Shown here: positions 4,002-54,950 of the stretch, in pieces
Layout of the letters: each line of letters opens with the position of its first letter
How positions within the stretch are numbered: position 1 is the stretch's first letter
Notes under the pieces: generated by a model
What the model saw: the letters and a program-made list of their open reading frames with translations, nothing else
Told to the model about the DNA's origin: nothing
Databases searched by the model: none
DNA from: Actinomycetota bacterium
GTDB taxonomy: Bacteria > Actinomycetota > CADDZG01 > WHSQ01
DNA length: 64,000 nt
NCBI GenBank assembly: GCA_009379915.1
Contig: WHSV01000001.1
Location: 1 to 64,000, forward strand
Reading direction: 5' to 3'
Made by a program: the position numbers and the translations under genes

Positions 4002-4430
4002 ATGATCAAGATCGGCAACGTTCAGCTGTGGGTGCACGACCAGGACGACTCGCTCGCGTTCTACACCCAGAAGCTTCAAATGAAGATACGCGCCGATGTG
4101 ACCGTCGCCGAGATGGGGAACTTTCGCTGGCTAGTCGTGGGCCCCGCGAGTCAGCCCGAGGTTGCGATCGTGCTCATGGCGATCCCCGGCCCTCCGATCA
4201 TGGACACGACGACGTCCGAGGAGGTGCGGGACCTCATGGCGAAGGGTTTCGCGGGGACGATCTTCCTCACGACCGAGGACTGCCAAGCCTCCTACGAGGA
4301 GCTCAAGGGCCGCGGTGTCGAGTTCGTCGAGGTGCCCGAGCAGCGTCCCTACGGGATCGACGCGTCCTTCCGTGACCCCTCCGGCAACCACATCCGTCTG
4401 ACCCAGGTCGACGAAACCTTCGGAGGGTGA
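4002..4430 (+). CDS. VOC-family (glyoxalase/bleomycin-resistance fold) protein
   Basis: 142 residues with the paired beta-alpha-beta-beta-beta units of the vicinal oxygen chelate fold. The N-terminal half starts VQLWVHDQDDSLAFYTQKL; the C-terminal half ends FRDPSGNHIRLTQ, the most conserved VOC signature, with its metal-binding position. Such proteins are small metal-dependent lyases, dioxygenases or drug-binding proteins; this one resembles the uncharacterised group often found beside AraC regulators. A clear GGAGG precedes the ATG by seven bases. It lies between the AraC fragment and a methyltransferase on the same strand. The substrate is unknown. Confidence 0.88.
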   Translation: MIKIGNVQLWVHDQDDSLAFYTQKLQMKIRADVTVAEMGNFRWLVVGPASQPEVAIVLMAIPGPPIMDTTTSEEVRDLMAKGFAGTIFLTTEDCQASYEELKGRGVEFVEVPEQRPYGIDASFRDPSGNHIRLTQVDETFGG

Positions 4431-51651: not shown

Positions 51652-52812
51652 TCAGGCTCCCATCCCCAGGCCCTGGGACCGCTGGAGGGCCTTTCCTTCC
51701 GTTTGAAGTGACGGAGCGACCATCACCTCGGCCTTCTGGAACTCTTTGATGTTGGCGTAGCCGCAGGTTGCAAGGCTCGTCCTCAGACCCCCGAACAGGT
51801 TGAGCCGTCCGTCGTTTTCGTGGGCCGGGCCGACGAGAATCTCCTCGAGCGTGCCGATCGTTCGGGTCTGAACCCGTGCCCCGCGCGGCAGGGTCGGATG
51901 GAAGGTCGCCATCCCCCAGTGGTACCCGTGCCCCGGGGCTTCCTCGGCCGCGGCGAGGGGCGAGCCGATCATGACCGCGTCCGCCCCGCAGGCAATCGCT
52001 TTCGCGATGTCGCCACCGGTCCGCATGCCGCCGTCGGCGATGACGTGGCAGTAGCGACCGGTCTCGTCGAGATGCCGGATACGCGCGCCGGAGGCGTCGG
52101 CGATTGCCGTCGCCTGAGGAACACCCACGCCCAGGACGCCGCGCGTCGTGCATGCGGCCCCCGGGCCGACTCCTACCAGTACGCCGACCGCACCCGTTCG
52201 CATGAGATGGAGGGCGGTCGAGTAGGACGCACAACCGCCGACGATCACGGGGATGTCGTACGTCGAAATGAAGCGCTTCAGGTTGAGCGGTTCGGTCCGC
52301 GTCGAGACGTGCTCGGCCGACACGACGGTCCCCTGGATGACGAGGATGTCGAGCTCGGCCTCGAGGGCGATCTTGTGGAAGCTTTCGACCTTTTGCGGAG
52401 TGAGGGAGGCACACGCTTCGACGCCGGCATCCTTGATCTCTCTGATGCGCTTGTAGATGAGCTCTTCCTTGACGGGCTCCGCATAGACCTCTTGCATCCG
52501 GGCGGTGGCCTTGTCGGGAGACAACTCGGCGATCTCGGCAAGCACCGAGTCGGTGTCTTCGTAGCGGGTCTGGAGTCCTTCGAGGTTGAGAACCCCCAGG
52601 CCCCCGTGCCGCCCCACCTCGATCGCGGTCCGCACCGAAACCACGCCGTCCATTGCCGACGCCATGAGTGGAAGCTCTAGCTTGAAGGCGTCGATCTCCC
52701 AAGAGATGTCGACGTCGTCGGGGTCCCGAGTCCGTCGGGACGGGACGATAGCGATGTCGTCGAACCCGTAGGCCCTGCGACCTGACTTGCCGATGCCGAT
52801 CTCGATCTCCAC
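51652..52812 (-). CDS. guaB3: GuaB3-type IMP dehydrogenase family protein
   Basis: About 386 residues. It has the IMPDH/GMPR TIM-barrel without CBS domains, the type found beside guaB2 in actinobacteria and cyanobacteria. The start EIEIGIGKSGRRAYGFDDIA and IVPSRRTRDPDDVD match that group. The loop GPGAACTTRGVLGVGVPQ contains the active-site Cys, and GGMRTGGDIAKAIACGADAV is the phosphate site. GTG 52812 is chosen because GGAG lies five bases before it and it matches the family start; ATG 52842 would add 10 residues. It converts IMP to XMP in purine synthesis or is a regulatory paralogue. Followed by a strong terminator. Confidence 0.93.
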   Translation of the reverse strand: MEIEIGIGKSGRRAYGFDDIAIVPSRRTRDPDDVDISWEIDAFKLELPLMASAMDGVVSVRTAIEVGRHGGLGVLNLEGLQTRYEDTDSVLAEIAELSPDKATARMQEVYAEPVKEELIYKRIREIKDAGVEACASLTPQKVESFHKIALEAELDILVIQGTVVSAEHVSTRTEPLNLKRFISTYDIPVIVGGCASYSTALHLMRTGAVGVLVGVGPGAACTTRGVLGVGVPQATAIADASGARIRHLDETGRYCHVIADGGMRTGGDIAKAIACGADAVMIGSPLAAAEEAPGHGYHWGMATFHPTLPRGARVQTRTIGTLEEILVGPAHENDGRLNLFGGLRTSLATCGYANIKEFQKAEVMVAPSLQTEGKALQRSQGLGMGA

Positions 52813-52916
52813 CTGAGCTCCCTGTCTACTTACGGCGACCATAATCTCGATCGTCGGTTAGTCGTTCGCTGGCCCTGCCACCAACCTAACTCCGTCGCTC
52901 CCGTCCATGCCCTCTT

Positions 52917-54950
52917 TCAGTGATCTCTGTCCTGGCGAACCAACCGACCGGACCTCTCGTCGTCGAGCAACTGCATGTCGGCATCGACCATGAGCCGAGC
53001 GAGCTCGGTGAAACTCGTTCGGGTCTTCCAGCCGAGCTTCTCGTGCGCCAACGAGGGATTCCCTCGCAGGTGATCGACCTCGGCCGGCCGGTAGTAGTTC
53101 GGATCGATCTCGACGTGAGCCTCCCAATCGAGGTCCGCGTGTCCGAACGCGACCTCGCAGAACTCGCGCACGCTATGTGCCTCGCCGGTTGCGATGACGA
53201 AGTCCTCGGGCTCGTCCTGCTGGAGCATGAGCCACATCGCCTCGACGTACTCCGGTGCGAAGCCCCAGTCGCGCTTGGAATCGAGGTTTCCGAGATAGAG
53301 CTTGTCTTGAATCCCGGCCTTGATCCTGGCAACGGCCCTCGTGATCTTCCGAGTTACGAACGTCTCCCCCCGACGGGGGGAGTTGTGAACGACCACGAGG
53401 CCGGGCCCCGCCGCGAACCGGTTGGACGACGTCGCGAGATCGAACATCCATCCCGAGTATCGGCGCGCCTCGACCTTACGCACCTCGGCTTGAGGCCTGA
53501 GGCGTTGACCTTTGCCCGTCAACGATCCGGAGCTGAGGTCCATCAGGTAGTTGCGCCTCTCTATCCCGCTGTGTTTCGGCTCGAGATACACGCCGACGCG
53601 GCGCCCCAAGGTGGTGCGGGCAAGCCAAATCAGTCCCGCTGCAAGCACCGGAGACGAAGTCCGGAAGGACTTGAAGATGCCGTTACCGTGTGCGGACCAA
53701 AGTCCGTTGCCGAGGTTGTAAGCGGTAAGGAAGGCGAGCTGGACCTCGGCCGACGCGTTCAGGATCCGCTTCGGTATTCGCTTGTGGCCGTCGCGGCCAT
53801 AGATCTCGTTGCGAATCATCCGCAGATACCCTGGGTTTCCCGTCAGCTCAAGCGTCGGGGTTCGCTTGGCCTGGAACGCAGATGGTGGTCCTTCTGTCTT
53901 CCTGCTCCTTCCGGCCGCGATTCGCGACCAACAGATTCCCGCCTCCGCCAGTAACTCCTCATCACCGCACGCGATACGCGCGCTCCCCTCGGGGGAAACG
54001 AAGCCCTCGGATACGAGGATTCCCAGCAACCAGGCTTCATCCGTGGTCATCGTGCAGGCGAACGTGTGATCCGGCTGATTTGCCAGCCGCAACCGATCGC
54101 CTTCCTCTACATCCTCAGCGGCTCGTTCCCCACTCTCGAGATAGACGACATGGTCGCCGGTCGTTTCGACGATCCCGCCTCGGCCATGGATCGCGAAGAT
54201 CTCTTCCTCGTGCCAGGTGGCGGTGCGCGCGGTGCAGGTCGCCCAGTCATCTCCATCCCAGACCTCGAGGCCGCCGCCGTCGCTCGTGTGCCGCTTGCCC
54301 TTACTGGGGTCGGTGCGATGTGGCACCAAATCAGCGATGGCAACAACGTCCACGAAACCATGCTTGCGAACTACTACCGGAGTCTCTGCGGTCACACATT
54401 CGTGGTTGAAGAGGATTCCGTTACACGCGTACATGCCGTAGGCCTCGCGGTAGTTGACCGCCATCCAGTGAGCCATGACCTTGGCGACCGCATAAGGGCT
54501 TCGTGGATGAAAGGCCGAGTCCTCGGAATGCGGCGGCGGGGTGGTGCCGAACATCTCTGACGATCCTGCCTGATAGAAGCGCGTAGCTATGCCGGACGAG
54601 CGGATGGCTTCCAGAATGCGAACCGTGCCCATAGCGGTCGAGTCCGCCGTGTACTCCGGGATCTCGAAGCTGACCTTGACGTGGCTCTGGGCCCCCAGGT
54701 GGTAGACCTCGTCCGGCTCGAGGTTACGGACGAGATTCACGAGCGACCCTGAGTCCGACAGGTCCCCGTAATGCATGAAGAAGCGCACGTTGCTCTCGTG
54801 CGGATCCCTGTAAATCGGTTCGAGGCGATGGGTGTTGAACGACGAGGCTCGTCGGATGAGCCCGTGGACCTCGTACCCCTTGGTGAGGAGCAGCTCTGCG
54901 AGGTAGGAGCCATCCTGGCCCGTGACCCCGGTTATCAGCGCCTTCTTCAT
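52917..54950 (-). CDS. gmd: GDP-mannose 4,6-dehydratase precursor containing an intein
   Basis: 677-residue precursor. After splicing, a 338-residue Gmd (184 + 154) would remain, the normal length. Gmd makes GDP-4-keto-6-deoxymannose, the precursor of fucose, rhamnose-D and related surface sugars. The extein has the NADP motif TGVTGQDGSYLAELLL, the catalytic YAVAK (Y-x-x-x-K, about 153-157) and the substrate motifs SEMFG and SPRRGETFVTRKI. The intein sits between NHE and SPRRG. ATG 54950 is the family start; no Shine-Dalgarno is visible. It is not clustered with GDP-fucose synthase or glycosyltransferases. Confidence 0.96.
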   Translation of the reverse strand: MKKALITGVTGQDGSYLAELLLTKGYEVHGLIRRASSFNTHRLEPIYRDPHESNVRFFMHYGDLSDSGSLVNLVRNLEPDEVYHLGAQSHVKVSFEIPEYTADSTAMGTVRILEAIRSSGIATRFYQAGSSEMFGTTPPPHSEDSAFHPRSPYAVAKVMAHWMAVNYREAYGMYACNGILFNHECVTAETPVVVRKHGFVDVVAIADLVPHRTDPSKGKRHTSDGGGLEVWDGDDWATCTARTATWHEEEIFAIHGRGGIVETTGDHVVYLESGERAAEDVEEGDRLRLANQPDHTFACTMTTDEAWLLGILVSEGFVSPEGSARIACGDEELLAEAGICWSRIAAGRSRKTEGPPSAFQAKRTPTLELTGNPGYLRMIRNEIYGRDGHKRIPKRILNASAEVQLAFLTAYNLGNGLWSAHGNGIFKSFRTSSPVLAAGLIWLARTTLGRRVGVYLEPKHSGIERRNYLMDLSSGSLTGKGQRLRPQAEVRKVEARRYSGWMFDLATSSNRFAAGPGLVVVHNSPRRGETFVTRKITRAVARIKAGIQDKLYLGNLDSKRDWGFAPEYVEAMWLMLQQDEPEDFVIATGEAHSVREFCEVAFGHADLDWEAHVEIDPNYYRPAEVDHLRGNPSLAHEKLGWKTRTSFTELARLMVDADMQLLDDERSGRLVRQDRDH
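53382..54398 (-). other. Gmd intein, 339 residues, with a degenerate LAGLIDADG endonuclease
   Basis: An in-frame self-splicing protein element. Block A CVTAETPVVV begins with Cys1 (codon 54396-54398). Block B ends TTGDHVVYL with the TxxH pair Thr80/His83. Block F is YSGWMFDLATSSNRFAAGPG, and block G VVVHN has the penultimate His338 and terminal Asn339. The following extein residue is Ser, a valid +1 nucleophile. In the middle, LLGILVSEG (about 124-132) is a LAGLIDADG motif; the second one reads FLTAYNLGNG, where the usual Asp-containing FDGDG has become NLGNG, so nuclease activity is probably lost while splicing residues remain intact. Confidence 0.95.

What the first reader, a model, noticed from the sequence alone, without database searches (positions are those of the whole stretch)
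53382..54398. Full intein inserted in the NHE|SPRRG motif of GDP-mannose 4,6-dehydratase
The sequence shows a 339-residue in-frame insertion with Cys1, TxxH block B, VVVHN at the end and Ser +1; removing it leaves a 338-residue Gmd, which is the family length. It lies inside the most conserved substrate/cofactor segment of the enzyme, the sort of place homing inteins prefer. I do not recall gmd as a well-described intein host, so this may be a new insertion site for actinobacteria. Unspliced protein should be inactive, so splicing would gate nucleotide-sugar synthesis.
Basis: partly seen in the sequence, partly recalled or inferred. Interest (0 to 1): 0.85.

Follow-up and report, generated by a model that had tools for sequence, protein, structure and literature searches.

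The report
Self-splicing intein inside sugar-enzyme gene gmd
A selfish self-removing protein insert (an intein) sits in this bacterium's only copy of an enzyme gene that makes activated 6-deoxy sugars; the same insert occurs at the same spot in other actinobacteria, other bacteria and viruses, so it is real and mobile, but it belongs to a known kind.

Summary
Window 53382-54398 (-) encodes a 339-residue intein between Glu184 and Ser185 of GDP-mannose 4,6-dehydratase (Gmd), with Cys1, block-B T..H, terminal His-Asn and Ser+1. Removing it leaves a 338-aa Gmd. Single profile hits are weak, but an alignment of 23 relatives matches a solved archaeal VMA intein end to end (E 3.5e-24), and the predicted structure (pLDDT 89) finds the same inteins.

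The same intein sits at exactly this site in gmd of other Actinomycetota, one Rhodocyclaceae genome and eleven viral contigs, and one codon upstream in two Rmd-like paralogues. The host Gmd groups with intein-free Gmds of its own family; the intein does not (p-AU 4e-96), so the intein moved on its own.

Close relatives include an eroded endonuclease and a 165-aa mini-intein.

The "new host" idea is only partly right: a gmd intein is published for Thermosynechococcus (PMC9403480). I found no report for actinobacteria in the held open-access library. "Splicing gates sugar synthesis" has no support here. Splicing itself is inferred.

The parts
52917..54950 (-). gmd precursor gene, 677 aa (N-extein 184 + intein 339 + C-extein 154); only gmd found in the genome
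54399..54950 (-). N-extein of Gmd: Rossmann glycine motif, GSSE, YxxxK, ending ...GILFNHE
53382..54398 (-). intein, 339 aa, Cys1 ... His338-Asn339
54150..54161 (-). splicing block B, T80-G-D-H83
   Evidence: alignments A1-A4
53499..54062 (-). LAGLIDADG homing-endonuclease domain (approx. intein residues 113-300)
   Evidence: PF14528 LAGLIDADG_3 in 19 of 23 family members; match to PI-PkoII and VMA inteins
54000..54029 (-). first LAGLIDADG motif (block C) LLGILVSEGF, acidic residue Glu present
53700..53732 (-). second LAGLIDADG motif (block E) FLTAYNLGNGL; catalytic Asp replaced by Asn at intein residue 231 (codon AAC, 53706-53708)
   Evidence: Asp in nearly all homologues, motif eroded in L090/L091, deleted in L102
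53382..53447 (-). C-terminal splicing blocks F/G, MFDLATSSNRFAAGPGLVVVHN
52920..53381 (-). C-extein of Gmd, starts with the +1 nucleophile Ser of SPRRGETFVTRK

Best explanation
A class 1 intein with an embedded LAGLIDADG homing endonuclease is inserted between NHE and SPRRG of Gmd. The steps, by established class 1 chemistry, would be: N-to-S acyl shift at Cys1, transesterification to Ser+1, Asn339 cyclisation helped by His338, and ligation of the two Gmd halves into a 338-aa enzyme. The element arrived in this lineage horizontally, separately from the gmd gene that carries it. It is now probably past its invasive stage, because the endonuclease has lost one catalytic acid (D231N), while the splicing residues are kept because the cell's only gmd needs them. 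Shown here: gene anatomy, homology, identical site in relatives, discordant trees, motif states. Inferred: that it splices, that the unspliced protein is inactive, and that the endonuclease is dead or only nicks.
For: Junctions and reading frame. Profile of 23 homologues to the solved TliVMA intein 7qsu, E 3.5e-24 over positions 5-342 of 342. Model pLDDT 89.1, pTM 0.89, with top Foldseek hits TliVMA, PI-PkoII, PI-PfuI and PI-SceI. Same site in 21 gmd genes of the alignment, window included. Empty sites in 15 Gmds of its own class. The Gmd tree places the window with its own family (81% identity, supports 99/97 and 99/99) while the intein tree places it with remote hosts (100/99); AU test against one clade p 4.4e-96. 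A single gmd gene in a 95%-complete genome. D231N in block E. In L090/L091 dN/dS (NG86) is about 0.60 in the endonuclease region, 0.19 in the splicing part and 0.025 in the extein. Mini-intein L102, 165 aa.
Against: No splicing data. The window intein by itself scores under the curated cut-offs (Pfam Intein_splicing E 0.11, TIGR01445 E 0.025). The rest of the endonuclease domain is as well preserved as in intact relatives (58% against 52-53% in the N-splicing part), so the endonuclease may have been lost very recently, or Asn may be tolerated. D231N rests on one metagenome-assembled genome.
Confidence: 0.93

Rival explanations
1. The intein is a regulatory switch: splicing responds to a condition (redox, temperature, metals) and so controls GDP-6-deoxysugar synthesis.
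For: The insertion lies between the YxxxK catalytic residues and the SPRRG arginines, and there is a single gmd gene, so splicing would control all activity. Conditional splicing of other inteins is known (own knowledge).
Against: Relatives in the same family have no intein. The element moves independently of the host gene. Homologues are in viruses and unrelated bacteria. No regulatory partner or conserved extra cysteine was seen. An endonuclease and its decay series fit a selfish element.
Confidence: 0.04
2. The intein no longer splices, so the gene is a dead gmd or the two domains act unspliced.
For: Weak single-sequence profile scores; Asp to Asn in the endonuclease shows some decay.
Against: Cys1, T80, H83, H338, N339 and Ser+1 are all kept; block F is intact; the extein is conserved (506 bits); there is no stop or frameshift.
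Confidence: 0.03
3. It is an intein, but the endonuclease is still active (a Glu/Asn active site) and the intein still homes.
For: First motif keeps Glu; domain identity to intact homologues is not reduced.
Against: The second catalytic acid is replaced by Asn; nearly all full-length homologues have Asp there. LAGLIDADG enzymes need both acids for double-strand cutting (established knowledge).
Confidence: 0.1

Closest known systems
gmd intein of Thermosynechococcus spp. (PMC9403480)
   Same: Full-length ('type II') intein reported in gmd, the gene for GDP-D-mannose dehydratase.
   Different: Cyanobacteria; insertion site not given in the text read and sequence not obtained here, so identity of the site is untested.
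Gmd inteins of other Actinomycetota found here (L003/L089, L088, L090, L091, L102, and Solirubrobacterales L092, L094-L100)
   Same: Same insertion boundary NHE|SPRRG; 33-58% identity, full length except L102.
   Different: Most have intact LAGLIDADG acids; L090/L091 are eroded; L102 is a 165-aa mini-intein; several start with Ser1.
Archaeal VMA inteins TliVMA (7qsu/7qss) and PI-PkoII (2cw7)
   Same: Same two-domain architecture, splicing blocks and LAGLIDADG endonuclease by profile and fold.
   Different: Other host proteins; about 14-18% identity.
GDP-mannose 4,6-dehydratase of Pithovirus LCPAC304 (A0A481Z7I5, 791 aa)
   Same: Best viral structure match to the intein (E 2.8e-31, TM-score 0.89 by query length), in a protein annotated as Gmd.
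   Different: Giant virus, 24% identity; site not checked.

Membership tests
class 1 intein | Nucleophile (Cys/Ser) at position 1 | tested here: met
   Cys1
class 1 intein | Block B TxxH | tested here: met
   T80-G-D-H83; H83 is invariant in 23 homologues
class 1 intein | C-terminal Asn with penultimate His, and Ser/Thr/Cys at +1 | tested here: met
   VVVHN|S
class 1 intein | HINT splicing fold | tested here: met
   AlphaFold2 model pLDDT 89.1; Foldseek hits to solved inteins, E down to 7e-23
class 1 intein | Profile similarity to known inteins (not strictly defining: the curated single-protein cut-offs of PF14890 and TIGR01445 are missed) | tested here: met
   Alone: E 0.11 and 0.025, below cut-offs. 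As a family profile: E 3.5e-24 to a solved intein over its full length, so the miss is a sensitivity limit of the models
class 1 intein | Autocatalytic excision and extein ligation | not testable with these tools
   needs expression
active LAGLIDADG homing endonuclease | Two LAGLIDADG motifs, each with an acidic catalytic residue | tested here: not met
   motif 1 SEG (Glu) met; motif 2 LGNG has Asn in place of Asp. By fold it is a LAGLIDADG domain; as an active enzyme the test fails
active LAGLIDADG homing endonuclease | LAGLIDADG fold | tested here: met
   Foldseek matches I-SceI, I-DmoI, PI-SceI
GDP-mannose 4,6-dehydratase (host) | TIGR01472 equivalog cut-off of 415 bits | tested here: met
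   506 bits in two stretches

The most novel reading that the evidence does not exclude
A single Gmd-site intein lineage is traded between actinobacteria, proteobacteria and phages, and has also jumped into another enzyme of GDP-6-deoxysugar synthesis (Rmd-like), one codon off so that a Thr serves as +1. This would make gmd/rmd genes a virus-linked homing site with every stage of the homing cycle preserved (full, point-mutated, eroded, mini).
Probability: 0.45. Interest if true: 0.55.

Novelty: new member of a known kind. Interest (0 to 1): 0.42.

Why it matters
Most well-described intein hosts are DNA-handling proteins (own knowledge). Here the host is a sugar-nucleotide enzyme that is also carried by phages, and the same intein is found in those phages. 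It gives a tractable series (full, point-mutated, eroded and mini forms within one intein clade) for testing how inteins spread and lose their endonuclease, and a warning that automatic annotation can miss such inteins because the standard models score them below threshold.

Tried and rejected
Chance or artefact: rejected by identical insertion boundaries in other genomes. Vertical inheritance of the intein with gmd: rejected. A second, intein-free gmd that could cover for the first: none found. Plasmid carriage: no match in PLSDB. Annotated phage records: only distant helicase and polymerase inteins. Compositional foreignness: GC 62% in the intein against 61-63% in the exteins; GC3 73% against 82%, not informative. 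A first viral scan with the single intein sequence found nothing; the precursor found one intein-bearing locus (L007) and the alignment query found more. Literature: searches for intein with gmd or mannose dehydratase gave one relevant paper, PMC9403480; nothing for Solirubrobacter.

Full report
WHAT IS THERE. The minus-strand frame 52917-54950 encodes 677 residues. Residues 1-184 and 524-677 are Gmd: TIGR01472 at 506 bits, cut-off 415, in two stretches. Solved Gmds align up to ...ILFNHE and resume at SPRRGETFVTRK; the junction is 187/188 in E. coli 1db3 and 216/217 in Arabidopsis 1n7g.

IS IT AN INTEIN. By single-sequence profile the answer is weak: Pfam Intein_splicing E 0.11 but reaching the last profile position, TIGR01445 E 0.025 starting at residue 1, GyrA-intein model E 8e-4. 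With 22 homologues aligned it is clear. The profile matches the solved TliVMA intein (7qsu) at E 3.5e-24 over positions 5-342 of 342, and PI-PkoII at 2e-17. PF14528 LAGLIDADG_3 is found in 19 of 23 members. The model of the window intein has pLDDT 89.1 and pTM 0.89, and its best PDB hits are TliVMA, PI-PkoII, PhoVMA, PI-PfuI and PI-SceI. Cys1, T80/H83, His338-Asn339 and Ser+1 meet the class 1 residue set.

WHERE ELSE IT OCCURS. It is one copy in its own genome and absent from the other 23 genomes of its class at E 1e-6; 15 Gmds there have an intact NHES junction. In the phylum sample, G032 (58%), G135 (41%, single-contig genome) and G090 (29%, in a paralogue) carry it. A genome scan added 15 loci, including Solirubrobacterales, Rhodocyclaceae and Rokubacteria; one of these, labelled Acidobacteria (L089), looks like the same gene as G032's. 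16 of 232 genomes of G135's order have a match to the intein profile. Eleven viral contigs have the same insertion: L103, L104/L105, L106, L107/L108, L109 and L142-L145; slashed pairs are near copies, so nine distinct. L108 is a true phage by its neighbours (UvsX, DnaB-like helicase, thymidylate synthase, exonuclease); L103 was not confirmed as viral by the proteins tested. All insertions in Gmd are between E and S of NHES. The best viral structure hit is a 791-aa Gmd of Pithovirus LCPAC304, site not checked.

PARALOGUE. [quoted passage not shown] TIGR01472 only 162-180 bits). There the boundary is FNH|TGPRRG, one codon upstream of the Gmd boundary, which places Thr at +1.

HOW IT GOT THERE. 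The Gmd tree puts the window with its own family, which is otherwise empty (supports 99/97 and 99/99). The intein tree puts it with G032, L088, L090/L091 and L102 (100/99), with contig L103 as sister (97/96). Forcing the six hosts into one Gmd clade is rejected, p-AU 4.4e-96. So the intein moved without its host gene. The direction and the carrier are not shown.

STATE OF THE ENDONUCLEASE. Motif 1 is LLGILVSEG (Glu kept). Motif 2 is LTAYNLGNG, with Asn231 where G032, L088 and nearly all full-length relatives have Asp. Nearby relatives show later stages: L090/L091 have lost the acid in motif 1 and the motif 2 consensus, with dN/dS about 0.60 in the endonuclease region, 0.19 in the splicing part and 0.025 in the extein; L102 is a 165-residue mini-intein. 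In the window the rest of the domain is not faster-changing, so the loss, if real, is recent. This rests on one codon in one metagenome-assembled genome.

FUNCTION. The insertion lies after the S/T...YxxxK catalytic residues and just before SPRRG. PMC3584063 describes a conserved Arg190 in a Burkholderia Gmd as needed to orient substrate and NADP; by position it falls in SPRRG (my inference). With one gmd in the genome, splicing is probably required for the enzyme made from it. That is a dependency, not evidence of a switch.

NOVELTY. PMC9403480 already reports a full-length intein in Thermosynechococcus gmd. I found no report for actinobacteria, phages or Rmd in the held open-access library, which lacks most subscription papers and intein databases. 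Verdict: new member of a known kind, with an unusually complete decay series and a one-codon-shifted paralogue.

Noticed in passing
own genome G000, contigs C109 (L117) and C56 (L119): Two further inteins in the same genome: one in the DnaB replicative helicase and one in an adenosylcobalamin-type ribonucleotide reductase.
   Followed up: partly
L005 (G090) and L101 (Rokubacteriota): Homologous intein in an Rmd-like nucleotide-sugar enzyme, inserted one codon upstream of the Gmd site (FNH|TGPRRG), starting with Ser1 and with Thr at +1.
   Followed up: partly
L007/L104, L106, L107, L109, L092, L100: Several Gmd inteins end in KN, AN, GN or SN, lacking the penultimate His, so they would need a variant final step.
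   Followed up: no
L110 (IMGVR_UViG_3300008050_006056), ORF at 4141: DNA polymerase A-type ORF with an apparent in-frame intein-like insertion (CLAKGAQVLSRNGW...LIVHN|C).
   Followed up: no
L087 (LR756508.1, 484-kb phage): Unannotated 625-aa frame with an intein just before DTDSVFYP, as in a family B DNA polymerase; 22% identical to the window intein over its full length.
   Followed up: no
window 51652-52842 (-): IMP dehydrogenase/GMP reductase-like gene directly downstream of gmd; no sugar-polymer cluster was seen among the ten neighbouring genes scanned.
   Followed up: partly
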